Source of the DNA: Melieria omissa
Lineage: Eukaryota > Arthropoda > Insecta > Diptera > Ulidiidae
Reading direction: 5' to 3'
Assembly: GCA_963971225.1 (NCBI GenBank)
Contig: OZ020267.1
Coordinates: 115,950,936 to 116,014,935 of the forward strand
DNA length: 64,000 nucleotides
The position numbers and the translations under genes were made by a program. Each line of letters starts with the position of its first letter. Position 1 is the stretch's first letter. Positions 19,969 through 63,603 of the stretch are shown here, piece by piece. Under the pieces are notes generated by a model. The model did not search any database. It saw only the letters and a list, made by a program, of their open reading frames with translations, and was not told where the DNA came from.

Positions 19969-21749
<1,781 letters not shown>

Positions 21750-26614: not shown

Positions 26615-26626
26615 AGATCAAGTACA
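26615..26626 (+). other. Kr-h2: Splice acceptor and 5' leader of Kr-h2
   Basis: The run CTTTTCCATTTCAG ends at about 26616 and is followed by a 10 nt leader and the Kr-h2 start ATG. This indicates that the first coding exon is joined to an upstream untranslated exon, whose position I could not fix. Confidence 0.5.
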
Positions 26627-28402
26627 ATGAGTGACGACACTGGCGATCACCAAGACAATGGCACCTCAACGTCGTCTAGGCCACCACCGCCGAGAGATCA
26701 AAGCGCTCAGAATCTTCCCGCGAAAATGCTTGAGCACATCAAGGAGAATAAGGTGGACTTAGCTATGTGGGCCACTCGTGTGCTGACCATCTTGTTCACT
26801 ATCGGTTATGTGCTGCCAATCTTTGGGTTCGTTAGTATGGAGTTTTGGCCCCAAGTTCACCTATGAAATTTTAATTGTGGTTCTGCTTTCTCCCTAACAG
26901 CAACCAACAAAGTGCATTCAACAAAGTATTGCTGTCAAATGCCGCCACATCAGCGTTGCGTTTGCATCAGCGTCTACCCTCCTTCACATTTTCGCGGGAC
27001 TTTTTGGCGCGTCTCTTCGTTGAGGACTCATGTCATTATTTAATGTTCTCGCTGATATTCTTCAATGTGCAACCGACATTGTTGATTCTTATTCCCATTG
27101 TGCTTTTTGCTGTTTTGCATTCATCGAGTTATTCGCTGAAGCTGCTTGACGTGAGTCTACTGCCAAATATATACTGTTCAAGGCATATGCCTAAATCAAG
27201 TTGTAAATTTTGTCGTTGTAGATAATTGGCCAAAATTCATGGTGGGGAGCACGTTTCCTTATTTCGCTAGTTGAGTTTCAGGCCGGCAATATTTTGAAGG
27301 CGGCCGCATATTCCGAAATATTCATTATGCCGCTGGCGGTGATTTTAACATTCATGTAAATATTTATTAAAAACTTATTATAACTTATTATTAGAATAGC
27401 TGTTAAATTATATAAGAAACTTGGAAACTTGGTTACAACACCGCAACAAAACCTCGAATGCTCAACTTTCGTGTAAAACTATTCGAATTCCGGATAATGT
27501 ATACCACGCACCATGGGTGGAAAATTAAATGTGTTATACATATCGCTCCTTCGCTGCATGAACGTCACAACTCAAATCTACATCATTCCGAGAAAATTCA
27601 ATTTTAAAATTTACCATTACAGGCAGTTCAAGGTATCAAACAATTTTTCATGTCGTCTTGTGAGCAAAGTATTGAATATTTTACAAAGAGGTTTTGACAG
27701 ATAAAAGATCATATGCAGATACAGACAGGGCTGCCATAAACTGAAAAAATTTTTTTTTTAGTTATGACGTTCTTGCAGCGAAAGAGCGATATATTAAATG
27801 GCCGTAAGCACGAGGGTTTCTTCCTCCGCCTGTTGGCTGGTGCGAACGATAATAGTTGAGACCCGTGTCATATATACAGAGACTAAAAGAATGAGATTAG
27901 ATGATGCAAAATTAGTACAAGCCATGCATATGTTTGTCGTACAATTGCCAGTAGACATCCGATTCCAAGTTTTTCAAGTGCGGGTCGCTAGGTTTAAGAA
28001 AAATTACAAGATTTATTTCATTTATATGTAAACTCAGAATATTTATTCCACGTAATAGATTCGTTTGTAAGTATAATTTAGGGGGGCGGAGATTCAGATG
28101 AATGGATGCCGCCTAATTTTTAAAGACGATATATTTAGAGCATTTGTATAACATTGAATTTTTCTTTTTGTAGGGGAAAAGCTGGTCTTATGACACCAAT
28201 TGTATACTATCATTTCCTGGCTATGCGTTATAGCTCGCGTCGTAATCCTTACACACGAAATGCGTTCACCGAGCTACGTATGGCGAGTGAAGCCCTTGCC
28301 AGGCGCTCACCACCCATTGTCGGAAAGATAATGTTCGGCGCCATTGCATTCGTGGGCCGCTTGGCACCACAAGCCCAACCGTCGCCAACACCAACGCAAT
28401 AA
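26627..28402 (+). CDS. Kr-h2: Kr-h2, TMEM33-family ER membrane protein
   Basis: Fly member of the TMEM33/Pom33/Tts1 family, multi-pass proteins of the ER and nuclear envelope that shape ER tubules and tune reticulons and stress signalling. Four exons are read: 26627-26826, 26901-27150, 27222-27355 and 28174-28402. Introns of 74, 71 and 818 bp with GT..AG ends are in phase and give 270 residues. The N terminus is hydrophilic and Pro/Ser-rich. Hydrophobic segments follow: TRVLTILFTIGYVLPIFG, a long stretch FSLIFFNVQPTLLILIPIVL, and FIMPLAVILTFM near the end of exon 3. The conserved tail contains TPIVYYHFLAMRYSSRRNPYTR. Despite the name Krueppel-homolog 2 there is no zinc finger. The first and third exons end inside codons, so single open frames under-call the gene. 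In Drosophila it lies next to Kr-h1, as I recall. Confidence 0.93.
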
Positions 28403-36275: not shown

Positions 36276-37019
36276 TCAGGTGTACAACTTTGCTTCCGCC
36301 GTTTTCCGATAGGTGGCTGTACCGGCTGAGGCTGGTTGAAATACATAGATGGTAATGCCTTTAAAGTGAGTGTGGACAGTGCCTAACGAATTGTCATCGC
36401 CGTTTCAGTGACAGTTGTTCTTGTTTTCGTATTATTCATGCTCGAAAATGTCCGTTTATGTGCCCAATTCTCGCCATTTGCGGGAAGTTTTACTTTTCTG
36501 TTACAATTCGAAAAAAAATGCAGCTGAAGCGCATCGAATGCTCTCAGAAACTTACGGTGATGCTGCTCTGAGTGAAAGAACGTGTCGGGAGTGGTTTCAA
36601 CGTTTTAAAAATGGTGATTTCGATGTCGAAGACAAACATGGTGGTGACCACTTTTGCGGCCTCACGTCGCAAAAGTGGTCAAAAAGTACCTGGAATGACG
36701 CTGAAATGGGAAGTCTTGCCCCACCCGCCGTATTCCCCAGATGTCGCCCCTTCTGACTTCCACCTATTCCGTTCGATGGCACACGGCCTGGCAGATCAAC
36801 ATTTTCAATCCTTCGAAGAATTGGAAAAATGGATTGCTTCATGGATAGCGTCAAAAGAGGACTCCTTTTTTCGAGCCGGGATCCGAAAATTGCCGGAAAG
36901 ATGGGAGAAAGTTGTCGCTAGCGACGGACAATACTTTGAATAATACATCTGTAAGCACTTTTTCGCAATAAAGCTTTTAATTTTGGAAAAAAACGGCGGA
37001 AGCAAAGTTGTACACCTGA
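36276..37019 (+). mobile_element. Internally deleted mariner (mauritiana/rosa-type)
   Basis: The terminal repeats are near-perfect: the left end begins TCAGGTGTACAACTTTGC followed by TTCCGCCGTTTT, and the right end is its complement. Both are bordered by TA, the mariner target duplication. The element is 744 bp, against about 1.3 kb for full mariners. It keeps the start and the end of the transposase and has lost the middle, so it can move only if another copy supplies transposase. The first bases are close to those of Mos1-like elements. Confidence 0.92.
36448..36943 (+). pseudogene. mariner transposase remnant, middle deleted
   Basis: Begins at the ATG at 36448 with the N-terminal helix-turn-helix part (conserved ERTCREWFQRFKNGDFDVEDK about 42-62 codons in). 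After about 36640 it jumps to the region just before the last catalytic block. A small frame shift near 36690 then separates the frames. The C-terminal part reads YSPDVAPSDFHLF, which keeps the third catalytic aspartate, and ends KLPERWEKVVASDGQYFE. The first two catalytic aspartates are in the deleted part, so no active enzyme can be made. A 12 bp hairpin ACCACTTTTGCG/CGCAAAAGTGGT sits at the deletion joint. Confidence 0.9.
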
Positions 37020-45695: not shown

Positions 45696-46969
45696 GTGTT
45701 TTTATTATACTTACTTACTTAACTGGCCATAACAACCCGTTATCGGGTTACGGCCTGCCGCAAAACTTCTCTCCAGGCGCCTCTGCTTCGCGCGCGCCTT
45801 CTCCAGTTGGTCACACCAAGAGATACCAGGGCCTCTTCCACTTGGTCCTTCCACCGGAGACACGGCCTCCCTCTTCGCCATCGACCTCCAACCATCGCAT
45901 CGAATACCTTTTTCGCCGGAGCTTCGTCGTCCATGCGGCAGACATGACCGAACCAGCGTAGCCGCTGGATGTTAATTCGCTGCGCTACGTCCATGTCCTT
46001 ATACAGCTCATACAGCTCGTTATTGGTTCGTATGCGATAGTCGTCACCAACCCGAACAGGGCCGAAGATTTTGCGAAGCACCTTCCTCTCGAACACTCCA
46101 AGGGCCGCTATGTCGTTTCGTGTCATTGTCCATGCTTCAGCGCCATAGAGGAGCACGGGCAAGATAAGCGTCCTATAGAGTGAAAGTTTTGTCGGTCGAG
46201 AGAGGTCTCTACTTCTCAATTGCATACCGAGACCGTAGTAGCACCTGTTGGCAAGAGTTATCCTTCGCTTTATCTCCAGACTGACATCATTGCTGCTGTT
46301 GATGGCGGTGCCAAGGTAGACGAATTCCTTGATAACTTCAAAAGCATACCTGTCGGCCTCGAAGTGAGACCCTAGCCGCTGCGAGTCCCTGCGTGTAGAC
46401 AGCATATACTTCGTCTTGCCCTCATTTACCACCAGACCCATTTTGGCAGATTCTCTTTCGATAACCGCAAAGGCAGCGGTGACATCTCGCTTGTTACGTC
46501 CGATGACATCAATATCATCAGCGTAAGCAAGGAGCTGGACACTTTTGTTGAAAATTGTGCCATTACGATGTACACCGGCCTTGCGCAGAACACTCTCCAT
46601 GGTGAAGTTGAAGAGGTCGCAGGACAAAGGATCGCCCTGTCTGAAACCTCGAACGGTATCAAAGGGGTCGGAGAGGTCACTTCCAACCTTGACCTTGACG
46701 GAGCTGCGCGTATTGCTCAACGTCGCTCTGCAAAGTCTAACGAGCTCTGCAGGGATACCAAGTTCAGACAATGCGGCATATAGGCGATCCCTTATCGGGC
46801 TATCGAATGCTGCCTTGTATTCGATGAAGAGATGGTGTGTATCGATTTGGTTCTCATGGGTCTTCTCCAGGATTTGGCGTAGAGTGAATATCTGGTCGAT
46901 GGTGGACTTACCAGGTCTAAAGCCGCACTGATAAGTCCAATCAGCGCCTTGGCGAGTGTTTTTATTATA
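45696..46969 (-). mobile_element. 5'-truncated non-LTR retrotransposon with target duplication
   Basis: The direct repeat GTGTTTTTATTATA (14 bp, perfect) stands at 45696-45709 and 46956-46969 and brackets an element body of 1.25 kb. On the minus strand the body starts inside the reverse-transcriptase domain and ends, just past the stop codon, in a short AAGTAAGTAAG tail. Truncation at the 5' side, a variable target duplication and a short tandem-repeat tail are hallmarks of target-primed reverse transcription. The perfect duplication and open frame suggest a recent insertion. Confidence 0.92.
45740..46955 (-). CDS. Reverse transcriptase, C-terminal part (partial, 5' truncated)
   Basis: An open frame with no stop from the 5' truncation point at 46955 to TAA at 45742, about 404 codons. 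It enters at the palm domain (FRPGKSTIDQIF), passes the conserved RGFRQGDPLS and the catalytic box AYADDIDVIG with the YADD metal-binding pair, then thumb-like sequence and a basic tail (RRGRPCLRWKDQVEEAL) typical of insect LINE elements. The first catalytic aspartate block is altered, reading YKAAFDSP. The endonuclease and any first ORF are missing. The clade is not assigned with confidence; the tandem-repeat tail would suit an RTE-like or CR1-like element. Confidence 0.88.
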
Positions 46970-47314
46970 TTTTGCTAAATAATGGCTAGCTCCTTATTTC
47001 ATGAGATGAGATGAGAAGGGAACAATGGTAGTCGAAACGACGAACGTTGGCTAAGCAGTGTTAAAGATGTAACACCAACAGAATGTCAGGGCGAATGGTA
47101 AAAAATGAGCATGAAGAAAACATTTGCCAATAAAATTCAGTTGCTTCACTCACCCGCTCACTCATCACTTAGTCAGTACAAGTACAAAAACAACAAGAAA
47201 CCACTTTTTACACAAAAAAATCCAGCGAAAACGGCAGACTACCAACACAACACAAAGTGCTGAGATGCAGATTTTATTGTTGCATGTGTAGGCAATAAGA
47301 CAACAATGTAACAA

Positions 47315-47466
47315 GGAGGCAATGCATCGGTTTTCGACAACCGCTCGACTTAACGCTACACCACACTGTTGTGTGTTCGCTCTCTCTCTCTCTGTCTCTC
47401 GCTCCCGCTTGCTACAAGTCGATTTTTCAAAGTCATGTGCAGGAGGCAGTGTGACGGTTTTCGACA
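47315..47466 (+). promoter_or_regulatory. Repeated GGAGGCAGTG..CGGTTTTC motif, pair 1
   Basis: Copy A (47315-47340) reads GGAGGCAATG CATCGGTTTTCGACAA and copy B (47442-47466) reads GGAGGCAGTG TGACGGTTTTCGACA. They are about 127 bp apart in the same orientation and flank a (CT)n-rich stretch. The CACGTG part seen in copies D and E is absent here; copy B has CATGTG just upstream. They belong to the six-copy family described under findings. Confidence 0.6.
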
Positions 47467-49782
47467 CAGCCACTGCGGCACGTGTAGCACGCTAGCAGCA
47501 GGCGACGGTCAACGAACTCTTCCGATGCACTCGTAAAGTGACGAGACGCGCACTTGAAAAGCGGCGCGGAGTATGGTGCGGGTGGGGTAGTGATGGTGGG
47601 AGTGTAGGCGTTTTGGGCGTTGGAGGGGAAGGGGAGGAAAGTGTAAGCAGTGTGTAAGTGCAACTATAACATATATGTATGTATTCACATGCATTCAATG
47701 TACAGAGAATACTCTGGTGAGTTCCAAAATGTGCGCCGTCTGACAGCAGTGAGTGCAGCACAGACAACGCATTTATCAAAACGAATCCAGCGCATAAATG
47801 AACCCTACATATATGTGCATAAGGTTGCGTACGTATGTACATGTGTGTGTGCATAAAGTATGGAAGAAGTTTAAAATCATTTCTGGGTGCATTGTAGTTG
47901 AAATCGTCTGCACCGAGGCTGTTTTTGCTGGTGCAATTGTTAACGCGTTCTGGTCACAAGGCAAATGCGGATCGCATTGCTGCAGGCATTCATTGTCGCC
48001 ATTTCGCTGCTTAGTCACTGAAATTCTTTATACACTTCGCACCCAGAACTACTAGCACGGTTGCCACAACAACAAATATGTGGCGTCATAGTGCCTGGGC
48101 GGTGAGATTGGCGATCCTCTCGTCCGTAAAAGGGGTGTGAAGGGGTATGTATCTTGGCTGCTGGAAATCTGCAAAGATTTCTATTATAAAACAGATTAAT
48201 AATAAAACATTACAATAATAAGCAGATATGCCACAAACAAGTCTCTAGGAAATGTAAAATTTCATTTCTACAAGAAGCATAGAATTGAACTTTTCGAAGC
48301 GTCATAAGAACCTAAAACTGTGTGGCGTTCAAGTATGTTAATCTTAAAGGAATTGAAAAAATTAATCGGGTTGGTACTGGAAGGTCCATATCACCCGCTT
48401 TTTAAGTGGGCGATAGTTAGTGAAGCGTCGTTCGGAAAAATGAAGTAATAAATGTTGAAAAGCTTGTATTTTACAACTAAATTCAATAACTCACACGTGC
48501 CCCGATGACACTTGACTGGCGGTCATTTTTTAACTCGCATTACAACACGACGTTTGTCGTTGACGTTTTGCAACGCAATTCCCCAATCAAAGGCGGAGGC
48601 TAGTGTGGAAACTTTAACACATTTACGTAGAATGGGCAAACGTAATTGCACACGCGAATTTATTACCTAATATTTACGGCGGGTGCACAAGTCCAAATAT
48701 TGACAATTGCTGCGACCGGTGTGCGATAAACGAGTGGTACGCGGTGCAAGAGCTTCAAATGCTAACCGGTGGTACGGCCGAAACTCTAATGAAAGTGCTG
48801 GCACGTGGGCTTGGAACGCGCTCGGGTACTATGGAATATTGCAACTTACTGCTTGTCTAACTACACAGCTAACAACAACAAACAAATGCTAAATGTACAT
48901 GTCTAACGTTGCGTGTTGCGTTTGCGGTACGAATAGGTATGTTACTTAGGTAATTTTTGGCGCATATTTGGTGAAGTCAAACATCCAGCCTCACGACACT
49001 TGATTTGTATGTCTATAGATTGGAGTTGTATGGTTGGTGCCAATGCCAATGTCCAATGCCCAGCCTATTCTTCCAGTCGAATTGTGCGACTAAAAGGCAA
49101 GTTCGGACCTAGATTCATTGATGTGTGTTTTTCAAATCGAAAGTTATGCGGAAAATTTGGGTCGCGAAAAATGACCCACGCCCCTTGACCACATTTTTTT
49201 AAGTTTTTACCCCACCCCTGATTTAAGACGAACAAAACAAAAACACAGTTTTTCAAATCGGTCGAGCTTCAGCGAAAGCAATTCGAGGTTTAGCGAAATT
49301 ATATTTGAAAATTTACTTAATCTGTACTCGTGTTAATTTTTTGCAAAAACTTCAAGCGTTCGTAACTGCTTAAGGTGTAGATTGCATGATTCTAAAAACT
49401 ATGACTTATTAAACCTTAGCAATTCTTCTCAATTGGAGGTTTAAAGATGTTTCCTAATTATAATTTTTTAAGACTTTGTTGCTAAATGGCAATTTAAAGT
49501 ATTATCAGTGAAAATTGTTGAATAGAACCAAAGATGGGAAATACATGTGAAAAAATGCATTTTTCTATTGCTGTCTTACGTTCTGCGACACCCAACGCCT
49601 CGCGCTGCACCAGGCGCTGCAACGTTGGGGTGCGCGCACAAGTGCGGCGCGCTGTATATCACAAAGTATGTAGATACCTCGGGCCTGAGTGTGCGCCGAC
49701 GAGCGACCACTCGTATCTGTGTGTTCGTGTGTGCTGTTCGGCGCGGCGCAGGCACAACATTTTTAGAATGCGATATGCGTAC

Positions 49783-49848
49783 TGTTGAAAACCGTCACAC
49801 TGCCTCCCTGAGGCTACTGTTGAAAACCGTTGCACTGCCTCCACGTGG
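49783..49848 (-). promoter_or_regulatory. Juvenile-hormone response element-like motif, pair 2
   Basis: On the minus strand copy C (49783-49807) reads GGAGGCAGTG TGACGGTTTTCAACA, and copy D (49818-49848) reads CCACGTGGAGGCAGTG CAACGGTTTTCAACA. Start points are 35 bp apart. Read on the plus strand copy D contains TGCCTCCACGTG, which differs only in its first base from the core GGCCTCCACGTG reported for Kr-h1 promoters, where the JH receptor pair Met (or Gce) and Taiman binds the CACGTG box. Binding here is inferred from that match only. Confidence 0.65.
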
Positions 49849-51799
49849 CCGAGTTTTGCTGCGGTGTACTGAGTGCGCTCTGTGCGGCATGTCACTGTTT
49901 TTTTTGCGCTGCCGCTGCGACTGTTTGTGTTTGGCATTGCTGTTGGTGTGGTGCTTGCAGTGGTCGATGGTGTGTGTGGCACGGCGAATGCAAGTTCTAA
50001 AGCAGTTTTAAAGGGCAGGAGTACTGCGTTGCGATTTTTGCGGCAAGCGCTGCAGCCGCCGTGACGCGAGCAGATGTTGTGCTGGTGGTAGTGTAGCGGC
50101 CATTGCAAAATTTCACCTTGGCTGCAGCAAAGCGAGGGTTGGCGTGAAGTTATCAGCGCCGGTAAACACACTACGTCTCGGTGGGCTGCAGCACCAGCAA
50201 CAGGAACAACGCCGTCGACGGCAGCTGTGGCTTCAGCACTGGTATAATGTAATGTGCTTACTGCAGTGACGATGGTGTCCGCGTGCACACGACCAGATGG
50301 TTGCGAAGCAGACGGCGCAGAAGATCGCGAACATATTGTCACAGCGCCGGCGGGAGCGGAAATGGGTCGTGGCAGTGTTTGGTGTTTCATTAAAGGACTA
50401 AAACACAACGACTTGACTGAAACACTTTTATATTTGCTGTTAAACTAAATATTTATAATAGCTTTTAGTTTATTAACAAATTTTTTAGGTAAATGAACAT
50501 TTTATGTTTTTCCCACTTGCCTGTCGTGTTTCGCACTTGGAATTCTATTAGAAAAGTGCGTTGAACTTTCAATTCACTTATAGACGACCCTCGGTGCCGT
50601 CCGGCAAAACTAACATTAGAAATAAATATTCCCCAAGTTACAAATTCAATTCAAAATACGTTTGTATGTACTCTGCAAAATGCATCAAGCAGAATCAGCG
50701 TTTGACACTTGGTTACTGGACAATGTTGGGTTAGTGCCGTCTATCAGAATCAGCGGCCTCGTCGGCATATACTCTTCACATACCCCTACCCATAGGTCCT
50801 AAGGCACAGCAAGAGGGGCGGCAAAATTTGAACGCAAAGAAAACAATGACAGAGCAGCAGCGAGTGACTAACGAAATTATTTGAAATATCATAATAAAAA
50901 TGTTATTGAGTAAGTAAAAGAAGAAACAACGACCACGACCACGCTGCGGCGATGACAGCGTCATGCCCGACACACCGGCAACGACAGCAGCTTCGGCTAC
51001 TGCGGCGGCGTCCAAATCGCCAAGAATCACTAAATTTGCTGTTATTTTTGGGCAGAATGTACAGCGGCCATCGCCGCTGCACGCACACAGGCGCGTGCAG
51101 TGCGAACCAGTGCAGTTGTGGTAGTGGGGGAAAAAGCAAAGCCAACAACAATTAGGCAGGGAAATAAAGCGAAAAGGTGTATTGAAAAGGGAAAAATGGT
51201 TTTTGCAAATTCGAACTTGGACGAACGGCTGCCGGTTGCAGTGGTGTGCGTGTGCGCACACACTCGCAGAGTGCCATGTGCATGCGTGTGTATCTGCGAG
51301 TGAGCTTTTGCTTTTATTTAGTGCGGCAGTCACTGCTCTTGAAAGCGAAACAGTTGCGGAAGCAGACGGTGGCGCACCGAGGAGAAGGTGTACGGAATCA
51401 TTTCATTCTTTGCTTGTGTGCGACAAAAACTTGACAACGTTACTACCAACAACAACAAAGCAGCGCCAACGCCAACGTCAACGCAGCCGTCAACGAACTT
51501 TGGAGCTTGGCCAAGACCGAGACAGAGACCGATTCCGATGCCGACCAGACTAAAGACGAGGCTGAGGTTGAGGCCATGGCTGACGCGGGGCGCTGAAAAT
51601 CGCAAACACCGACAAGCGTTCGCAGCAACGCTGCTGATAGCCACTGTAGCAGCGGTAGCAGCAGCAGACAGAGTCGCCGAGAGTTAGCACAACACAGAAC
51701 AGAGACCACACCACAGCGCTACAGCCGTGTGCCGCTTCGTATTTCTGAATCAGCTCGCAAGCGGTCACAACGTATTTGGCGCGTATCCGTACTTCAGCT

Positions 51800-53699
51800 C
51801 GAACAAACACAAGAACAAACGCAAAGCAGCAGCGGCAGCTTAGCAATTGTCAACCCATTAACAAGAGTTTTCTTAACAAAAGTGAATAAAATTAAATTAA
51901 ATTAAGTTGAGACAAAAGAATATGAGCGAATTTCTAGATCGGTCGAAGTGAATCAAATCTAACTGAGCACACATTATACACTACATTGACTTCGATCTCG
52001 GCCGGTATATGACGCTGCAAAAGACCCGTAGGGCATCCGCCAGCTCGAATGGAAGAAAAGTGCAATTTTGTAAATACTTACTGCAACTATAAAAACACTA
52101 AAGAAAATTATATACTTTGTAACTGCGAAACAAGTGTGCTCGTGTGCTCTTCACGTACACCACAGAGGGCACTGAAAGGAGCAGGATCCCCCAAACTAAT
52201 CGAAAAAGTGTTGTTGTTAATTGAGCAGGACGCATATGTTTGGCTCACTTTTTTCGCCAAATCTTGAAATTGCAACAAAACTATGCAAAATAAACGAATA
52301 GCATTAAAAATATTAATTATCTAACAGATACTGCGGCCACAATTTCTATTAGCAAGAAGACGTTGCAAAAAAGAACGCGAGAAAAATGCGAAAATAGCCT
52401 AAATATGCGATTAGTGGCGCATTACTAAGAATTTACTGCAAAATGTTGGCAATTTTACTCGTATCTTCTCGCTGCAACTGCTGGAGTGTGCGTGAATATT
52501 GAAAAAAACCTAGGTCAATATTGTTTATAGTGACATGTGAGCTAGAGAGCAAAACGGTTGCAAAAACAACGCAGGCGAAGCAACAACTACATTCATAAAA
52601 ACAACACTAAGAAAGCTTAACCAGCGCAAAAAAGCTAAATCGCCAGAAAAAAGTGTCTAAGCAGCAACCAACACTAGCGCAGCCGCCTAACACCCGCACA
52701 CATACACACTCGTGGCAGCGGGCGCACCAAGTTCAACAACGACCACAACTCATGTATATTTTCGAATATTTGAAACTTTTTGCAAAAGTAAACACATACA
52801 CACAAGAGCAAAATTCAAGTCACAAAAGCTTTCCCACAGCAACAGCACTTTGTGCGCCTACGAACCGTCCCTATTACACCCAACCCGCTTCTCCGCCGCC
52901 CTTAGGATTGGTCGCAAGCGAGGGAGCTCAGTGCGCGTGTGCCTAACAACCCAATAATAATAATAATACGTCATAAGCACCGACAAGGCATAAGCACACA
53001 TACGCCGGCTTCGAACTAATACTCACGCGCTCGCGTCGGCTCGTGTGCTGTGTTCACGCCCTGCGTGCTTCTGCCCCTAAGCTTAGGTTCTAAGACGTCA
53101 ACGCTTCCACTGCCGCCACCACCTCCACGAGCAGCGTTCCTCCGCGCAGCATCGTCGCCAACTCTCTCGGAACGCATAATGCGTGTTCGCCTGCGCTCTC
53201 GCTCTCTACTGTACAACACTACAAATATGATTAACAATTCTGTTGTGTTCGCAAATTGTTGCCTTGAACAGCCGGCGCTGGCTCCGCATTGACTTAATAT
53301 AAGTTGAAATACCGATCGTTCTATGCTCACACATCGGTTGCGCTCTGCAATTCATCAACAACACCTCAACAATTATTCGCACGCACCACTGCTCGCTGTG
53401 GCAGCGACAACCACAACCCGCCGTTGTTTTTGCCGGATCGGATCCAACGGTGTCCGCGTTCGCGTTCGTGTCCCTCTACGCGTTCGTGTTCGTGCCTCCT
53501 AACAACTAGTTTATCCGCATCCAGGACAACTCCCGTGGAGCCTAGCAAGAAACAATCACCACCTTCATACAGCCAACAACAAAATTTTGCTTCCCTTTCG
53601 GTCCGAACAGCCACCAGAGCAAAATTTCAATTCGACTACTTTGGATTTAATGCGCCGCTAAATACAGCTGCTTCTCACTTTCACATCTCGCTTTTATGG
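51800..53699 (+). other. Candidate 5'-untranslated exon ending at a splice donor
   Basis: A CAA/ACAC-rich, relatively GC-rich stretch with no long frame, of the kind seen in long 5' leaders of fly regulatory genes. It ends with a strong donor, TTTTATG followed by GTAAGTTGG at about 53699. The upstream limit is arbitrary. If the Kr-h1 assignment is right this would be an untranslated first exon about 2 kb downstream of motif pair 2. Confidence 0.25.
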
Positions 53700-55943
53700 T
53701 AAGTTGGTCACCAGATTTTTTTGTGGCACCGCGTACATGACAAGAGAGCTTCGATAAGGAGTGACAAAGTGCGGAAAGTCCACGATCTGACCGCTGAGCT
53801 GGGTACAGACACAATGTATTTCGTATCAGCGAGTCTGGGTGGGTGGTTAGCGATAGCTAATGTTTCGAATCTTTGTATGTATGTGCAAGTTGCACGGAGC
53901 TTTCAAACGAACCACTGAAAAATGCAGCTGAGTGCGTCCATAATCCAACCACTGCGCGTTGATTATTGAATGTGTATCAGTGACTTTGGGAACGTGGTAT
54001 CCACCGTAAATGAATCATTTGTACGTTAGTAAAGAACCGCAAGAATGTATGCGACAGTCCAAAGAACAGGTGTGCACTCTGGATTTACGCTTTGTGCTGA
54101 ACACAATAAATATTTACTCTAGTCTACTGCAGCGCTTTCTTAAGTACATACTAGCTATATGTGTGTTGTTGGTATGGGTTTGACAAAGTGAAATAGGAGA
54201 TACGGCAATCATCTCCCGATTCGATTACGACATTAGTCGGGCGGTTAAAATTTTGTGCGAATCGAAAGGAACTAAACCTGATTTCACACCAGGCATTACT
54301 CAGTATAAGGTTTTGACTTTCTCGATTCTCGTGGATATACTTTCGCACTTAGAAACCCTGTAGAGATACAATTTCACAATTGCTTACGCAACACGGCCCA
54401 TATGGAAATTAACCCATATGTGCGTGTACATGAAAAATGATATCTCTCAAAAGTGTTTTTATTTTTTCCAAATTGAAAGTGGCTTTTGCATTACAACATT
54501 AAGCATCGCACGGCACTGAGTTACAGCTGGTTTTAATGATATTGAGGATCGTTTTATCGCCACAATATTTGTTCTTTGTCAAAGAAATTTCGAGAATTTT
54601 GGCCATTCCGACACAAAATTCGCCCACGTGCTGACCTAGGCGTCGGCAATGCGCGAATGACGCGTTTTTGTTGAGGTAGCTCGTATTGCGTAGATGGTAA
54701 TATCCAACTCTACAAAGATAAAGACGAAATTGGGAACGGTGAGAAGCTTATTGGTTCTGACCGGTTTAGCTAAAGAACGAATTGTCATTTGGCCCGATAA
54801 GGGAGCCAGAGGCCAGACGCTTCTCACGGCAAATTCTGTAGCGTGTGTTTCGCCATAGTTATTTCTTGTCAGCCGATGCGCGCGTATCCACTGTACCCAC
54901 AGCAGTGGATAATAGCATAGAAATGATAGAAAGAACACAATACGAAAATAGAAGAGGAACATATATTTTGCAAGGTAATGTTTATTTGTTTTTAGCGAAA
55001 ATATTTCGACGATAATACTGACCTTCAAATTGTGTGGCTGGTGTGATTCCCGCTCTGCCGCACTCCGTATGCGTTGGTCTTAGTGCTTTATCGTCGAGAG
55101 AGTTGCGTGCGGCCGCATGGCACATGATTCGAGTCGGGTGCAGAAAGCCCAATGCCGGGCAAGGGGCAAGGAAGCGGGGCCAAGCCCTGAATACCCATGA
55201 CAATACAGTGGGTGTGATAGTTAGTGGGAACGCAAGTGTGTGAATACGATGCTGGGGTTATTAGTTGCGCCTACCAGTTCATGTGTGCTTTTGATACTAT
55301 TTGCGACTGAAGTACGGGAAAGCCGCCAAATGTGGTAAACACTGTGCCGAAGATTGCACTAGTGTCAGTTTAGCTTTCGGCTCTCGGGAATCAATCGTGT
55401 ACTGAGACAGTGCTATTTACGTTTTCGCTGCCCAGGCCCGGTTTATAAGGCGTGTTGCTTATGATAAACGGCGAAATATTTCTGCGAAACTATTCTGCTT
55501 AATTGATGTATCGTTTGTTATTCCGAGTGGAATTTCATGAATGGAGGTAATGTAGATTTTATTGGTTGGTGGTTGGTTTGCTTACCTGAGAGTGTTGGAG
55601 GATAAGACTATGACACTGCCCCAACAGGTTTCTCTGAAGTTTCATTTTTGTAAAACCGAAAGTGCTCGTTTCGTTTTATGCTCCTGTGTCCGCTACCCAC
55701 AGTGGAATCGTTCTTTTTGCCGCTTTAATGGATAAGCCTACATTTTCATTTTCATTTTTTAGCAACTGGCGAACGCTGTGGAGAGCCGTCGTAGCCGTTT
55801 TGTAGGTGGAATACCTGGAGGCAGCGATCGACCGACACGGCTACACCAGCATCTCTTCGCCGGCATTATCATCTAGATTAAGAAACGCGCGGCAAGACGA
55901 TAATTTAACTTATTAGCAATTTTCTATTGTAAAATATACAAGC

Positions 55944-55985
55944 ATATATCATACATATATTGTATATATCATACATATATTGTAT
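55944..55985. repeat. Tandem AT-rich duplication
   Basis: TATATCATACATATATTGTA occurs twice in direct succession (start near 55944 and 55966), a 22 bp period simple duplication. Confidence 0.7.
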
Positions 55986-58123
55986 ACTAAATGCGCATAA
56001 ATAAGCAACAACCATATCGCAAACCAACGCCGTCAGCGCGAAAATGACAGTCAACATAAAAACATCGTGTTATGCACATCGACGAGGCCCCCTTTGCCTA
56101 CCCCCAGAAATGTATCTGCAAGATACTCACAGCTACAGCTGCCGTAATGAGAACGGCGGTGGCCGTCGCTACGAAGCGGCTGTGACCAGCAGCACTGGTT
56201 ACTGCTGCTGACCACCACCACGTTACGCACGCTGACCTGCGTAGAAACAAATGGCACATGCCGGCGTGTTGTTGGCTGGTGTTGTTGCTATTTGTATGTA
56301 CGTGCGCGTCAGAATATGAGTTGCCAAAATCCAATCACTCTGCCCCTACTGCCCGTCTCGTTTGTCACACACTTGACTACCGCGTGTGCTGTATATGAAT
56401 TCACATTTAAAGCGCAATGAAATTCTATTGTACTTTCAATAGTTTCAGACAATAAACAAATGTATGTATGTTTGCTTCTTTGGCAAATACACTGGGTGAA
56501 TTTGCCAGAATCCGGTTCCTTGGAGACATTCGTTTTTAATACTATTCCAAAATTGATGCGCAGGCTCCTCTGAAAGTAGACATCCATACGCGGGATGTAG
56601 GGCACCTGACGAATTGAATTGCACATTGAGCTGAAAAGCAAGCGCGTCATCGCCACCATTTCATGCACACATTCGCACATAAACACACTTTTTAATAAGC
56701 CTGTTCTAGCTACTCACGGTCGTTGCATGTTGCCACTTGGGGTAGGTTTACGACTTGATTCTGCGATTCGGCACCCCGCGACAAAGACTTTTCAAACGAG
56801 CTACAGAGAATGAAATTTCCGTATCCCTATTTTCAATCCAAAAGAATACTCGACAGACTCTCGTTTTACTGATCTCGATTGGGAGTTAAGTTTCGTTTGC
56901 GATTTAGTTAGGCGATGTGAGTGCTTGACATATTAAACGATTTTGTCAAGTTTCGTCAACAGTTAACATATGTATTTATGTAATTATGCACAATTTCAAA
57001 ACAAGCCGAACTGAATGACGTGTTTATTGGCGTATTGCTCTGTTGTCTTGCTGCTCAGTGTTGGTTATTTCATCTAATACATTTTTTCATTGTTTGTGTA
57101 GTGTGAGTATTTCGAGCTGCTGCGACGCAGTTTTTATTCTCTGCGCTTTTTTAACGTACACCAATTTGATTCTGTTTTGGTTGGGGTTTCATTCGTATCT
57201 TCTCTTCCATCGTTCGCATTTCGTGTTTGAGACACTCGCCACCATGTTCTCGCTATGCATTTCGATACTTTGGCAAGTTCAAGGATAAACCCTCTACCCG
57301 CGACGCTTGTAAGCAGCTTTTGCGCCTTTCTCAAATTAATTTTGTGTCGTTTTTTTCATCAGAACTTCATTGGGTTTGCACCAATTTGAGTGTATGTATG
57401 CATCTGATCTTATTTGTGTGTAAGCACATATTGTTTGTGTGCCTATGTACATACATGTGTATTGTATGTACATAAGAATTTGTACATATATTATGTATAG
57501 CATATAGACATGCCGGCATGGCTGCAATGAAACTTGTGGACCCTTCATCATCATTTCCGGGCTTCCTATCAGTGTTTTTCATACTATACAAACGGTTAAA
57601 ATTGAATCCATTCCTATTGTAAGCCATATATAAGGCGATTGACTTCCTTAAAACTATTGCATTGGCTTCAAAAAAATGCTGTAGATTCAATGAACAAAAC
57701 CCACATAAAATCATACACTCCCACTTGCAGTGTGAGTTAAATAGGCGCGAAAAGCATATACTTGAAGATTTGTTTACTCAATATTACAATTTAAATATGT
57801 TTGCACATTTGAATGTATGTTCCTATGAATATGCGACATACAGATATGGCAAAAAATGTTGGTATCTGTATCTAGTTTTCTTAGCCTCACTTCACTTTCT
57901 ACAACCTGCTCAACTTGAATAACAATCGTTGTTTTGGCTTTCAAGAGAATTGTACGGTACACGTTGGCACTTGACGTTCAAACGTTTTTAGCAACTTCCA
58001 ATTTCTTTCTTAGAATATCTGCTGATGTATGAAAGTACACACATTCGCACGCACGCTACAGTTTTAATGTAAATTACGATTTGACGAAATTAATAAAATA
58101 TGAGCTATCGTTGGTAAGTAATT

Positions 58124-58207
58124 CTGGGCTCAAAAATAATAATTGCTTAGGTCACTCTTAACTCAGGGACATCCTAAGTCGACTCAAGCGATTATTGTTG
58201 TTGACCA
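58124..58207. repeat. Inverted-repeat element, family A, copy 3 (collapsed)
   Basis: Left CTGGGCTCAAAAATAATAAT then TGCTTAGG; right, inverted, TGGTCAACAACAATAATCGC then TTGAGTCGACTTAGG. The two ends are those of copies 1 and 2, but almost nothing remains between them, so this is a foldback remnant of about 84 bp. Confidence 0.7.
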
Positions 58208-58913
58208 AATATATAATTTTGAGACACACAGGTGCTCATATTCTGTCAAGGCTCGTATTTTAAACTGCAATAATTAAAAACGCGAGTTCTATATTAACGA
58301 TTTGACGAGAATCAAAATATTCAGTGATGTGTATGGCAGGATGTGGCGCGATAAGGCTTCGCGATAAGGATTCTTCCAGCGTATCTTCGTGCTTTGCTGC
58401 ATACGAGCTATGAAATTTTTGTTCAAACCATTCTAAGGACCCAAAAAGTATGCTTTTCCAGGAGCTACTCTAAAATTAAAATATTTTACACCTGCCGACA
58501 CGGTTCTTGGCGCTGTTGGGATTTTTTAAGTATGCACGACATAATTTAAGCTTTTCGAAATCTCCATTGCTTTATCTCCCTTTGCTAGCTGGCTGTTTTC
58601 GGAAAGTGTTACCGTTGTTGATTTGGCACTTGGTGCGTCTCTTTTGCTTATCGGTTTTTTTTTTCGTTTTTCCATTCTTTGTTTGCCAAAATTGCTGCCG
58701 CTGTTCATTGACCTTTGCCGACAGTTGGTCGGCCGGTTGGTTGCTGAGACATGCGTCTTTTTGTGTTAATAAACGTCCACGCCTGACATTTTGTTTAACC
58801 GAAATTCTGTTGCTTCAGCTCATTCCGTGTTTGTCCCTCTGCTGGCTTTTTATAATTTATTTGTGTACAAATGTACAAGTCTCAACTATAAGTATTGAAC
58901 GCTTTCGTGTATA

Positions 58914-59478
58914 CAGTTTGTCAAGTAAATGTTTGCAAACTTAAAAAAGGTAGAACAATTATTTTGAAAAGCTTATAAATATAACAGAAATTGCAATATT
59001 TTGAAATTTTTAAAAAATATAGATTATTAGTAATGTCAATTTGATACGCAAAAACAGTGTAAAAAATCAAAAAAGGAATGATGCTATATTTCAAACTGTC
59101 AAATTCGTCTTCTTTCAAAACCAAGATTGTATTGAAAATTTGGCGCCGTACAGTTCCGAACCGTTTCATGAGATACATCAGTTCCGCATTATATTTTTGT
59201 ATATCCAAAGCCATTTCCCTTATTGAGATACGGGGGTTTTCACGAACTTTTCGGATGATTTTTCTTTCTTCTCTGTCAGACAGTTTTCTGGGTCGTCCAG
59301 GAGATACTTTCAAATCAATTCGCCCTTCAATACGCGAATCAAATAGACATTACTTTGATATTATATGAATCTATATTTTTCAAATAATTTCAAAATATTG
59401 CAATTTCTGTTATATTATAAGCTTTTCAAAATAATTTTCTACCTTCTTTAAATTTGCAAACATTTACTTGACAAACTG
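58914..59478 (-). mobile_element. Tc1-like element with long inverted repeats, internally deleted
   Basis: A 565 bp element beginning CAGTTTGTCAAGTAAATG, with inverted repeats of about 115 bp at each end (58914 to about 59030 and about 59362 to 59478) that match almost throughout. TA flanks both sides. Long terminal repeats and CAGT ends fit the Tc1 group. Only the N-terminal part of the transposase remains. Confidence 0.88.
58921..59313 (-). pseudogene. Tc1-like transposase N-terminal remnant
   Basis: About 40 residues of the DNA-binding part can be read: GRPRKLSDREERKIIRKVRE (the GRPR AT-hook-like motif and a helix-turn-helix) then PRISIREMALDIQ. After that the frame runs through a deletion joint into the inverted repeat. 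No catalytic DDE residues remain. It begins inside the element without a clear ATG context. Confidence 0.8.
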
Positions 59479-59485
59479 TATATAT

Positions 59486-60091
59486 AGGGTGTTTTTTTTA
59501 GAGGTATAGAACTTCGAATTGAAATAAAAAACAAGAAAATGTCCATCAATTTGGCTTTATTGGAAGGATAATTTTATGCCATTAATGTTTAAATATGATT
59601 TCGGGCATGTGGCCGCGGCGGCTGGCTCGAATAAAGCCAATTCTACAGGTCCAATTTTTAGTTGATGGACAAAGCTCCAATTGCTGTGCACGGTGGCGAA
59701 TCGATTCATTCGGGTCCTCTTCAACATTTTGCTCTACAGCGGCAATTGTTTCTTCGGTGCGCACTGTTCGACGTCTCTGCGGATGCGTATTATAACATAG
59801 AGTAAACGTAGTGCGAAAACGACCCATGGTTAACCGATGGATGGACCGATTTTGCTCTGATGGACGATTATGTCGACCATAAAATGGACGGAGCTTGCGG
59901 TAAACTTCGCGAACTGAACCATTATTTTCGAAATAAATTTGCACGATTTGCAAGCGTTGTTCTTTTGTCAACCTGTTCATGATGAAATGGCAAACCAAAC
60001 TGAACATAAATGACATTAGAGTTGCCAGATTTGACCACAAAATGCCAGTTTTATCTCTATTCGAAAAACAAACATCTAAAAAAAACACCCT
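59486..60091 (-). mobile_element. Second Tc1/mariner-superfamily element, internally deleted
   Basis: Ends TATATAGGGTGTTTTTTTTA on the left and the same phrase inverted on the right, in a TATATA context. It is about 606 bp, with a shortened transposase on the minus strand, and lies only 7 bp from the right end of the Tc1-like element at 58914-59478. Confidence 0.88.
59582..59980 (-). pseudogene. Transposase remnant joining N-terminus to C-terminus
   Basis: Starts at ATG 59980 with MNRLTKEQRLQIVQIYFENN, a helix-turn-helix DNA-binding domain common in abundant insect Tc1/mariner-like transposases. It proceeds through a second domain (RTEETIAAVEQNVEEDPNESI) and then passes directly into the last residues, ending RRGHMPEIIFKH. 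The catalytic core between is lost by deletion, although the reading frame stays open. Confidence 0.85.
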
Positions 60092-60655
60092 ATATATGCG
60101 GATGTGTATTTTATTTAAACTGTAAGTTTGGAGGAGGATGAGTTTTTAAACTTATAATTATTGTAATATTGTAATAGGGGGTAGTGGGTAGGTTTGAGCA
60201 TAGATTCGGTCGAGCATAATTAAGGCAAATGGAGGGATAAAAAAATCAAGAGCGTGCCGTATTTGTACGTAGAATCGAAGGATCCTAGGATCCTTTAGTT
60301 TAGTTAAAGCTCCGAAATCAGTAATACACAAGCAGCGTAGAGTTGGTGCCGCAACCAACTGACGGCGACGTCGCGACAGCCAATGGCAGCGGTTGCGCAG
60401 CCAGCGCACACCGCCAAAACGACGAGTCAGGCTGCAGGGAGACAAAATGCAAAGAAAAAAAACAACTGCAAAAAAGGAAAAGCAGAAGTCGCAGCAGACG
60501 CAGTCGTCGTCACAGCAGTCAACAACACATGCACAAGTACGAACAAAGCAGCAACCGCAGCCAACCAAACGGTCGAATAGTCAAGCATTGGATGGCGGAT
60601 GATGGGGCCGAGTGCTGTGCACGAGAGGCACGTAAACAGCTTTGAACTTGAACTA
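60092..60655. other. Non-coding, (CAG/CAA)-rich sequence
   Basis: No gene is supported. From 60.42 to 60.58 kb it is rich in CAG, CAA and AAG triplets in all frames, giving overlapping low-complexity frames on both strands that are not credible proteins. Confidence 0.4.
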
Positions 60656-60773
60656 CACGTGGAGGCAGTGCAACGGTTTTCAACAGCAAAATGCATTCGG
60701 CTCGGCCGAAGCAAGCTGCAGCCGAGCTGTATGCGTTCGCCGCTTCGGAGGCGATGCAACAGTTTTCAACACA
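60656..60773 (+). promoter_or_regulatory. Juvenile-hormone response element-like motif, pair 3
   Basis: Copy E (60656-60685) reads CACGTGGAGGCAGTG CAACGGTTTTCAACAG, the same extended form as copy D but on the opposite strand. Copy F (60747-60773) reads GGAGGCGATG CAACAGTTTTCAACACA and lacks the CACGTG. The pair lies about 3 kb upstream of a possible splice donor at 63728. Confidence 0.65.
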
Positions 60774-63603
60774 GAACGCGACACAAAACGCATTCGCACG
60801 AATCGAAGTGAAAAAGTAAAACTGCAATAACGGCAACAAGGCTTGCTATCGATGTACAACGTGTAATTGCAGACATTGTAGTTGCGAAGCATTACGACGG
60901 GCGGGACGGTGTGGTGAGATGGGATGGATGGGACGTTGTAGGAATCAGATTGGCAACAGTGCGAACGATAATGAGATGTGCACTGCGGGTTCGACTGGTG
61001 GATGTAGTCGCTGTGAATGGCGGGGAAAAAGGAAGTACAAGTGGAGCTGAGGAGCTAAAGTTGGTGTGCGTATTAGCAGGATGTACCGATTGACTTCCTT
61101 GCCCGCAGAATGTGGGCATTGCTGGTGTGGTTGGTGCGAGGGTATCTTCTAAACGAAAGCGAAGTTTGTTTTTGTGTAAGGAATTGCAAAATTTACGAGG
61201 CGTTGGTATACAGAAAAGTTAAACAGGGAATAGTTATGTTTCTTTTTCATGATCTTCATTTTGAGTTAAATAATTACGGGGCGGATTTCCATGCAAATGC
61301 ATGTTTTATTCTGGAATGGAATGTTCTCAACAGAATTGACGTAATATCTTTCCGAATTAGAAAATTTCCTTTAAAATGGCATCACATTTTTAGTGCACAT
61401 TTTTGCAAGTTTATTCATTGTAGATTTTTTCGTATATTTTCCTAATTTAACTGCATAAAAACTAAATCATTTTTTTTAATGTTATTTCTAAAATATCTTT
61501 GGTTTTGTTGTTTTTACTTCATACACGCAGTAATTCGAATGTGTTCAATGTGAATTTCAATTTTAAATATTTCTTCAATTGTAATGTTTTGCTAGTATTG
61601 TATTCCTTGTGTTCAAATTAAATTTATAAAATATTTTTTTTGCTTATTTTTCCAATTTTAGATGCATATTTTCAAATTTTGGAAGCAAATTGTAAGAGCA
61701 TAAAAATCTGCTCCCTATAAATAACTAATTCAAAAATTAACAAATAAATGCACAAAAAACACACAAACAATACATAAATAAAATTAGTAATAAGTAAAAT
61801 AAATAAACGACACATCAAATCGGCAAACAAAGAGTTCTGCAGTTTGTGACCTACGCCAATGAAGAAATTTTATTATCCGCACTCAAGCCACACACATTAG
61901 CACACACACGCGTGCGCTCCAATAGATACACAGATACGCAGCAACACCAACTCACCCTCAAAACAACGAAGCGACGCAAGTGCAAGGCATGTCAGAATGA
62001 AAATCCTCAAATCCTCATACTTTATTGAAAAATGCATCTCAGTATTCTGTATAATACAAAAATGAAAGTAAGGGCCATTACTTTTATCGTTGTAACTTTA
62101 ACGTTTACTGAAATCTGAAAATTTGTTTTAATTGCCCTGAACCTCGTCCTTTAAAAACCATACGCAAAAATTTTGATCATGTGCAATATATCATCATAAC
62201 TGTTGTTCTTATAATTGATATTTGCGGGGGTAATTTTGAATATTGTATATTTGAATATTGTACCTTATTTTTGTCGTCTGCTGCTAAATTTAATCGTTAG
62301 GTTAGTATATGATCGATCTAACTTATGACTCTTCTAAAATCTTGAGTAGCGTTGATGATTTGTGTCCGGCAGGAGCTCAGCACGTGTTTTGCGGCGCCTT
62401 TTGCGGCAATAACAAATTTGCGATATTAAGACCCAGATGCGGGCACAATTAGCTCTTATCTCGCGGCCTTTCAACTTGGCGTCAAATTTCGTTAACTTTT
62501 TGTTAAGTCCACGCAGAAGGTTTCTTTAACTTCCGAGCGTGTGACGCAAAATGGCAATGTAAGCGTACCCGCCCATCCATAAATACACACACATGCATAC
62601 ATATGTATGTATGCACAGGCAATGCAAGCATATACGCATAAACGTACTTACGATACATTCTATTCTGACGCGTTTGCTAGTCGACAAGTACTATATAGGA
62701 TTTTCTGTGTTTGGTGAATTGAGGAGATATTTTTTGTTTCGTATCGTGTTGGTATAAAAATAATTAAGTACTCACAGTTTGTTTTTATTTATTTTTATGT
62801 AAATATTTCGACTTGGTAGAAACCATGAAAGTAAGAAAGCCCAGGAGCGGGGGAGCAGGCAAAAGCTCGTCGAGTGCGTGTGCGTCGCTCGCTTGCCACA
62901 GTTTACCATTGGTAAACTTTAATTCGTTTCCTTTTGTGCACGTAATTTAATAAATTGTAATGGAAACGCATACATAAACTCAGCAATAACCTCACCAGCG
63001 ACAGCAACAACAACAACGACAACACAAAACAAACTATTTAAATGTTCATTGACCTCATAGTGCTGGCTTGGCTCGTTAGCGATGACGGTGCGTCGTCAAA
63101 CGCAACATACGACGGCCATCGCACCACAAATCCCTGCTGCTACTGCTGCCACTGTGTCATCGCTAGCCCCAGCCGACATTTTTTTTTAATGATTTAAGTA
63201 CAACAAAAAATTAAATTAAATTTTGGTCTTCCATACATATTTGTTATTTAAAAAAATATATTTCTTTTCTCAGCAAGCTTTTCTTTTAATTGTCATTGGT
63301 AATTCGTTTGAGATAGTTTTATCAGCACTACAGAGACGATTTCTTTTCCCCTATTACATGCGTGTATGTAAGAAAACTTTGAAATATTTCCAAGAACAAT
63401 GCCTTTAATAAAACTTGTTTATCTCAAATATTACAGGTTTTATTTTGTATACATATATTCTGGATTCGCTCTGTTTATGCTTTTTCGTCATCCATAGGCC
63501 ATTTTAGCGGATGATTACTCTTCAAAAAATTTACCATTACAGTCAAGTTTCAATATTTTAGCAGCTGACGTGTGTCGTCAATTGTTTTTTTTCTGCTTTA
63601 TTC
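60774..63603. other. Non-coding DNA near the window end
   Basis: About 2.8 kb of mostly AT-rich DNA with a CATACATATGTATGTATG simple repeat near 62600. No frame resembles a protein family; nothing else is recognised. Confidence 0.4.

What the first reader, a model, noticed from the sequence alone, without database searches (positions are those of the whole stretch)
47315..60773. Six copies of an extended juvenile-hormone response element-like motif in three pairs
Seen: a 25 bp motif (GGAGGCAGTG followed by CAACGGTTTTCAACA, with a few substitutions) occurs at 47315, 47442, 49783(-), 49818(-), 60656 and 60747. The copies stand in three close pairs (spacings about 127, 35 and 91 bp) spread over 13 kb, and I found no copy in the other 47 kb. 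Copies D and E extend into CACGTG, giving TGCCTCCACGTG on one strand. Known: the core of the JH response element of insect Kr-h1 promoters is GGCCTCCACGTG, bound by Met/Gce with Taiman. What seems new is the conserved block to the 3' side (CAACGGTTTTCAACA), which is kept even in copies that lost the E-box. That suggests a second factor (Myb-like CAACGG or Grainyhead-like sites are possible) or a duplicated composite hormone element. Conservation of non-coding 25-mers in both orientations argues against a transposon relic, as no longer flanking identity is shared.
Basis: partly seen in the sequence, partly recalled or inferred. Interest (0 to 1): 0.88.

Follow-up and report, generated by a model that had tools for sequence, protein, structure and literature searches.

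The report
Six-copy DNA element private to Kr-h1
A 25-letter DNA sequence occurs six times upstream of the fly gene Kr-h1 and, allowing three mismatches, was found nowhere else in that fly's 490-million-letter genome; it is likely a docking site for regulatory proteins, and two copies adjoin a sequence through which juvenile hormone would act on this gene, a known brake on metamorphosis.

Summary
Six 25-bp copies stand in three pairs (47.3, 49.8, 60.7 kb). A search of the fly's own 490-Mb assembly at up to 3 mismatches returns these six and no others. Eighteen of 25 columns are invariant (GGAGGCnnTGnnnCnGTTTTCnACA); identity drops from 87% to chance at the motif's borders. The gene downstream, just outside the window, is Kr-h1; its first alternative coding exon starts at 66.46 kb on the window scale.

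The juvenile-hormone reading is partly supported. CACGTG sits in register in two copies (D, E), giving 11/12 of the silkworm kJHRE core; the other four lack it there, though each pair has a CACGTG within 18 bp. What is conserved is the 25-mer, not the hormone box. Kr-h1's own binding consensus and the silkworm 20E, Ouija board and Séance elements do not fit. Motif 1 (M1BP) fits B and C, and a recalled vertebrate CTCF core fits C, D and E.

Best reading: a long-footprint factor site largely private to Kr-h1, fused to a JH E-box in two copies. Binder, activity and conservation in other flies are untested.

The parts
47315..47339 (+). copy A of the 25-bp element (no E-box in register)
47442..47466 (+). 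copy B (no E-box in register; Motif-1-like, 12/15, on the - strand)
47479..47484 (.). CACGTG, 12 bp after copy B
49783..49807 (-). copy C (no E-box in register; Motif-1-like, 12/15, on the + strand)
49818..49842 (-). copy D (consensus, E-box in register)
49842..49847 (.). CACGTG fused to copy D (TGCCTCCACGTG on the + strand, 11/12 of the kJHRE core)
60656..60661 (.). CACGTG fused to copy E (CACGTGGAGGCA on the + strand, 11/12 of the kJHRE core)
60661..60685 (+). copy E (consensus, E-box in register)
60747..60771 (+). copy F (no E-box in register)

Best explanation
The six 25-bp copies upstream of Kr-h1 are likely paired binding sites for one long-footprint (probably multi-zinc-finger) protein that would regulate Kr-h1 and few other genes, and in copies D and E the site is fused to a CACGTG E-box through which the juvenile-hormone receptor Met/Gce with Taiman would likely act. 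Shown: six copies, all at this locus at up to 3 mismatches; sharp 25-bp borders; both orientations; Kr-h1 as the downstream gene; E-box in register in D and E and within 18 bp of every pair. Inferred: that selection keeps the copies, that a protein binds the whole 25 bp, that it acts on Kr-h1 transcription, and that Met/Tai binds D and E. In this model the factor reads GGAGGC..TG...C.GTTTTC.ACA and cooperates with hormone-bound Met/Tai at D and E. GCCTCC is shared by the kJHRE core and by all six copies, E-box or not, so that flank of the kJHRE may itself belong to a partner's site. Copies A, B, C and F would bring the partner alone, or help Met/Tai at a nearby E-box. Pairs about 19, 16.6 and 5.7 kb before the first coding exon suggest several enhancers or promoters with one shared input.
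For: Only 6 matches in 490 Mb, all here, reversed control 0. The 1-kb C/D stretch is single copy, its one other match being the 31 bp at E. Identity 0.87 inside against 0.22-0.25 outside: flanks have decayed to chance while 18 of 25 columns stay fixed. The islands share no more 7-9-mers outside the motif than random triplets do. Eight open frames across the copies match no Pfam family. Kr-h1 identified. D and E: 11/12 to the kJHRE core, 0 of 4,000 random stretches as good; all three pairs have a CACGTG within 18 bp, reached by 24 of 64,000 rotations of the window's 13 E-boxes. Precedents: BmKRP, a C2H2 protein acting on a non-E-box element of silkworm Kr-h1 (PMC7905918, passages); Ouija board, a ZAD-C2H2 factor whose essential target is one gene (PMC4684333, passages).
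Against: No protein is known to bind the element and no JH response was measured. Conservation in other flies could not be tested. No signal other than the repeats themselves shows regulation: no Inr with DPE or TATA was found in 44.0-69.3 kb. D and E are nearly identical, so their E-boxes are not independent. Parts of the motif resemble other factors' sites: Motif 1 in B and C, a recalled CTCF core in C, D and E. The relaxed genome search (18 columns, 2 mismatches) did not complete, so weaker copies elsewhere are not excluded.
Confidence: 0.48

Rival explanations
1. All six copies are JH response elements bound by Met/Gce-Taiman, with degenerate E-boxes in A, B, C and F.
For: D and E at 11/12 of the kJHRE core; CACGTG within 18 bp of each pair; Kr-h1 is the textbook JHRE-bearing gene (PMC9092015, passages).
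Against: In register A, B, C and F read AACAAG, GTGCAG, CTCAGG and GCTTCG; their best match to the kJHRE core is 6-8 of 12; the strongest constraint lies in GGAGGC and GTTTTC, not in the E-box. CACGTG is also Hairy's site in Aedes (PMC6818763, passages).
Confidence: 0.1
2. The copies are sites of a common promoter or architectural zinc-finger protein (M1BP at Motif 1, or CTCF), marking Kr-h1 promoters or loop anchors.
For: B and C match Motif 1 at 12/15 (4 of 8,000 random 35-mers do as well); all four such sites in 164 kb include B and C. D matches a recalled vertebrate CTCF core at 11/12 (0 of 4,000 random) and C and E at 10/12 (7 of 4,000).
Against: Each fits a different subset: Motif 1 is at chance in A and F and modest in D and E (10/15, 243 of 4,000), CTCF at chance in A, B and F (7/12). 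The recalled fly CTCF form fits none (6/9). 19 patterns were tried. Such proteins have many sites, yet the full 25-mer has none elsewhere. Motif 1 orientation differs between pairs.
Confidence: 0.12
3. The copies are Kr-h1's own binding sites, giving autoregulation by its eight zinc fingers (8 x 3 bp would span about 24 bp).
For: Length fits (inference); copy C matches the KBS TGACCTNNNNYAAC at 8 of 10.
Against: KBS matches are 6, 7, 8, 7, 7, 6 of 10 for A-F; 8 is reached by 98 and 7 by 752 of 4,000 random 33-mers, and D/E match in another register. No exact KBS in 164 kb. The 30-bp silkworm core and the mosquito core do not fit.
Confidence: 0.05
4. The copies are leftovers of short local duplications or gene conversion without function.
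For: C/D look like a 35-bp tandem duplication; D and E share 31 identical bp; both orientations are possible for short insertions.
Against: Six copies keep 18 of 25 columns while every flank compared has decayed to chance; borders coincide in all six; known repeats of that size would not be confined to one gene's upstream region (inference).
Confidence: 0.1
5. The element acts in RNA (leader exon or intron of Kr-h1 transcripts).
For: Transcript starts are unknown, so some copies may be transcribed.
Against: C and D lie on the strand opposite to A, B, E and F; no Rfam family matches 46500-62000.
Confidence: 0.03

Closest known systems
kJHRE, the JH response element of Kr-h1 (Bombyx, Tribolium); core GGCCTCCACGTG as quoted in the finding and recalled
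   Same: Same gene; D and E carry TGCCTCCACGTG, 11/12.
   Different: Four of six copies lack the E-box; 15 further bp on the other side are conserved; six copies in three pairs over 13 kb.
20E cis-element of silkworm Kr-h1 bound by BmKRP (PMC7905918, passages seen)
   Same: Non-E-box element of Kr-h1 read by a C2H2 protein.
   Different: Sequences unrelated: TTATTAA and AATAATCATT match at best 5/7 and 6/10, as in most random stretches.
Ouija board and Seance-Mld response elements (PMC4684333, PMC5788525, passages seen)
   Same: Works like: a gene-private element, no exact copy elsewhere in its genome, hormone-pathway target, ZAD-C2H2 binder.
   Different: Sequence unrelated (at best 8/15); single sites of 15 bp near the gene rather than six of 25 bp at 6-19 kb; binder here unknown.
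Motif 1 / M1BP (PMC8263732, passage seen)
   Same: B and C match 12/15.
   Different: At chance in A and F; genome-wide promoter motif rather than a private site.
Kr-h1 binding site KBS (PMC9092015, passages seen)
   Same: Copy C matches 8 of 10.
   Different: Six copies together at chance level.

Membership tests
JH response element (JHRE) | E-box CACGTG or CACGCG within the element | tested here: not met
   in register in 2 of 6 copies (D, E), absent in 4; D and E taken alone meet it
JH response element (JHRE) | match to the kJHRE core | tested here: inconclusive
   11/12 in D and E, 6-8/12 in A, B, C, F; core recalled, not found in the library
JH response element (JHRE) | located upstream of Kr-h1 | tested here: met
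   Kr-h1 coding exons from 66464 on the window scale, + strand
JH response element (JHRE) | hormone-dependent activation by Met-Tai | not testable with these tools
   no expression or binding data held
Kr-h1 binding site (KBS) | TGACCTNNNNYAAC | tested here: not met
   6-8 of 10 in the copies, like random sequence; no exact site in 164 kb
BmKRP 20E element | TTATTAA and AATAATCATT | tested here: not met
   at best 5/7 and 6/10
Ouija board / Seance-Mld element | AGCTTTATTATTTAG or AGCTTTATTGCTCAG | tested here: not met
   7-8 of 15
Ouija-board-like system (works like) | element private to one gene | tested here: met
   6 of 6 genome matches at this locus at up to 3 mismatches; weaker copies not excluded
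Ouija-board-like system (works like) | dedicated ZAD-C2H2 binder | not tested
   binder unknown
Motif 1 (M1BP) | G[AC]TACGGTCACACTG | tested here: inconclusive
   12/15 in B and C, 10/15 in D and E, 8-9/15 in A and F
CTCF site | CCGCGNGGNGGCAG (recalled, vertebrate) | tested here: inconclusive
   11/12 in D, 10/12 in C and E, 7/12 in A, B, F; recalled fly form 6/9 in all six
Dispersed repeat or transposon | many copies elsewhere and shared flanks | tested here: not met
   none elsewhere at up to 3 mismatches; C/D island single copy; flanks at chance identity

The most novel reading that the evidence does not exclude
Kr-h1 carries a private 25-bp address, six copies and no others in 490 Mb, read by a dedicated multi-zinc-finger factor: a one-factor-one-gene switch for the anti-metamorphic master gene, like Ouija board for spookier, with the juvenile-hormone E-box grafted onto two of the sites. 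The GCCTCC flank of the kJHRE would then be the hormone element's share of this partner's site.
Probability: 0.32. Interest if true: 0.82.

Novelty: new variant of a known kind. Interest (0 to 1): 0.66.

Why it matters
Kr-h1 transduces juvenile hormone and holds back metamorphosis across insects. Its control through an E-box is known, and in the silkworm a 20E element with a zinc-finger regulator is known. What gives a short, shared E-box its gene specificity is less clear. An information-rich partner site found only at this gene, and fused to the E-box in two copies, makes that question directly testable: the 25-mer can serve as bait for the partner.

Tried and rejected
Rejected: dispersed repeat; KBS; silkworm 20E, Ouib and Seance elements; known RNA family; coding sequence with a known domain across the copies (8 of the 10 frames scanned, 0 families). 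Recalled Su(Hw), Grainyhead and EcR consensuses are matched at their best copy as well by 422, 527 and 2,139 of 4,000 random stretches; a recalled Myb core is intact in D and E only. Finger-code guesses for Kr-h1 and for the piragua-like protein, made by hand from a recalled table, are matched as well by 1,040 and 1,206 of 4,000 random stretches and are not used.

Corrected on review: one search gave CTCF too little 5' flank and scored it at chance, with 10 bp on either side, finds 11/12 in D and 10/12 in C and E for the recalled vertebrate core, so it is kept as a rival, not rejected. My confidence in the best explanation was lowered from 0.5 to 0.48 and the novel case from 0.33 to 0.32 for this.

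Led nowhere: shared 7-9-mers of the three islands outside the motif, no excess over random triplets. Inr with DPE or TATA in 44.0-69.3 kb, none on either strand. The motif in viral contigs: 0 matches. Its 18 invariant columns in bacterial/archaeal genomes: 4 matches in 257 billion bases, where uniform bases would give about 7 (own arithmetic). A paper search for six motif strings: 89 papers hold at least one, 40 listed; neither 14-mer occurs in the listed rows; 49 were not seen and none was opened. First flank test: scores within pairs and those of about 50-62 are artefacts of overlapping windows and of masked Ns matching each other; one search replaced it. A half-site GGAGGCAGTG at 66261 (window scale), near Kr-h1's first coding exon, and one at 33237 lack the 3' block.

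Recalled, from no call: the kJHRE core (also in the finding); CTCF, Su(Hw), Grainyhead, Myb and EcRE consensuses; the finger code; the short Motif 1 form. The 15-base Motif 1 is from PMC8263732 (passage). Papers: only passages were seen of PMC9092015, PMC8487040, PMC4214675, PMC11651902, PMC4684333, PMC5788525, PMC7905918, PMC6818763 and PMC8263732; the others only as listings.
Full report
WHAT IS THERE. The six copies reported are in the sequence: A 47315+, B 47442+, C 49783-, D 49818-, E 60661+, F 60747+. With up to 3 mismatches the 25-mer is found six times in the window and in none of 100 shuffles. Eighteen columns never vary: GGAGGC..TG...C.GTTTTC.ACA. Of the seven variable columns six hold transitions only; the seventh has one A/T change. 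Borders are sharp: mean pairwise identity is 0.87 over the 25 bp and 0.25 and 0.22 over the 30 bp before and after (15 pairs for the motif, 14 for each flank, C/D left out because they overlap). D and E share 31 bp, CACGT before and G after.

HOW UNUSUAL. The window lies at C1:115950936-116014935 of a 490,334,835-base assembly. Searching it at up to 3 mismatches returns 6 places, all in this window, and none for the reversed control; about 0.06 would be expected by chance. CACGTGGAGGCAGTG occurs exactly only at D and E; with one mismatch there are 18 more, against 14 for the reversed control, so background. The 3' block CAACGGTTTTCAACA occurs exactly three times, as D, as E and once elsewhere, against 4 for the control. 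The 1,001 bp around C/D are single copy, and the only other match is the 31 bp at E. So the element is not a dispersed repeat, and its 3' block is not a common word. A looser search (18 columns, 2 mismatches) was asked 22 times and never answered, so weakly similar sites elsewhere are not excluded. The tool also warns that it skips very common words.

WHICH GENE. A hundred kilobases to the right were fetched. L007 carries a C2H2 gene on the + strand, eight fingers by eye. Its 532-residue frame is 64% identical over 98% to proteins named Krueppel homolog 1 of Rhagoletis zephyria, Teleopsis dalmanni and Anastrepha ludens, the first three of 120 rows listed. On the window scale: two alternative first coding exons at 66464 (MNDVLESFRKMRMNR, 3 query hits) and 67323 (MTESEDASHSW, 21 query hits), the common start MVYY at 69215, a zinc-finger exon at 70818-72389 and the last at 72580-72966. 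The nearest host gene to the left among the 20 frames scanned with Pfam (10 each) begins near 26.6 kb (TMEM33 domain). The copies thus lie about 19, 16.6 and 5.7 kb before the first Kr-h1 coding exon. Eight open frames that span or adjoin the copies match no Pfam family. Transcript starts are unknown, so promoter, leader intron and distal enhancer cannot be told apart.

THE JUVENILE-HORMONE QUESTION. JHREs in Kr-h1 contain CACGTG or CACGCG (PMC9092015, passages). A 13-nt motif with the E-box is described as essential for Met-Tai (PMC8487040, passages). D and E carry CACGTG in register, giving TGCCTCCACGTG, 11/12 of the kJHRE core; 0 of 4,000 random stretches score as high. The other four read AACAAG, GTGCAG, CTCAGG and GCTTCG in that place. 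Yet each pair has a CACGTG within 18 bp; 24 of 64,000 rotations of the window's 13 E-boxes achieve that. D and E are not independent, so this is suggestive, not strong. Hairy's site in Aedes is also CACGTG (PMC6818763, passages). The fair statement is: a conserved 25-mer, with the hormone box attached to two copies and close to all three pairs.

WHO MIGHT BIND IT. A 25-bp site with 18 invariant columns in two blocks around a looser middle suggests a multi-finger protein or a fixed-spacing complex (inference). Kr-h1 itself is not supported: the KBS TGACCTNNNNYAAC fits the copies at 6-8 of 10. The best, copy C, is equalled by 98 of 4,000 random 33-mers. Ouib, Seance-Mld and BmKRP elements do not fit. 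Two leads remain, each for a part of the copies. Motif 1 of M1BP fits B and C at 12 of 15, as 4 of 8,000 random 35-mers do, and only four such sites exist in 164 kb; D and E reach 10, A and F are at chance. A recalled vertebrate CTCF core fits D at 11/12 (0 of 4,000 random) and C and E at 10/12 (7 of 4,000), but A, B and F only at 7/12, and a recalled fly form fits none. One search tried 19 patterns, so one or two such fits are not decisive. M1BP is a paralogue of Ouija board, a ZAD-C2H2 factor whose essential target is spookier (PMC4684333, passages). That pair is the best works-like model, not a claim of membership. BmKRP shows that Kr-h1 can have a zinc-finger regulator acting on a non-E-box element (PMC7905918, passages).

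JUDGEMENT. Shown: copies, uniqueness at up to 3 mismatches, borders, gene, E-box positions. I saw no report of this element in the listings of the library searches made, but only 40 of 89 papers were listed and most subscription papers on JHREs are not held.

Noticed in passing
8564-10700 (-): ZAD-C2H2 zinc-finger gene, orthologue of a protein named piragua in Bactrocera oleae (60% identity); the named hits among the eight best rows are tephritid flies at 57-60%, so the source is a higher fly near Tephritidae.
   Followed up: partly
20461-21764 (-); 1501-2672 (-); 26561-26866 (+): RtcB RNA-ligase, acyltransferase and TMEM33-like genes: neighbours useful for synteny with other Kr-h1 loci.
   Followed up: no
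36412-36943 (+); 45740-46993 (-); 58921-60145 (-): Mobile-element relics: Mos1-type transposase HTH, reverse transcriptase, and two HTH transposase-like frames flanked by 60- and 40-bp inverted repeats at 58910-59482. The last lies between motif pairs two and three.
   Followed up: no
33237 and, outside the window, 66261 on its scale: GGAGGCAGTG half-sites without the 3' block; the second lies about 200 bp before Kr-h1's first alternative coding exon.
   Followed up: partly
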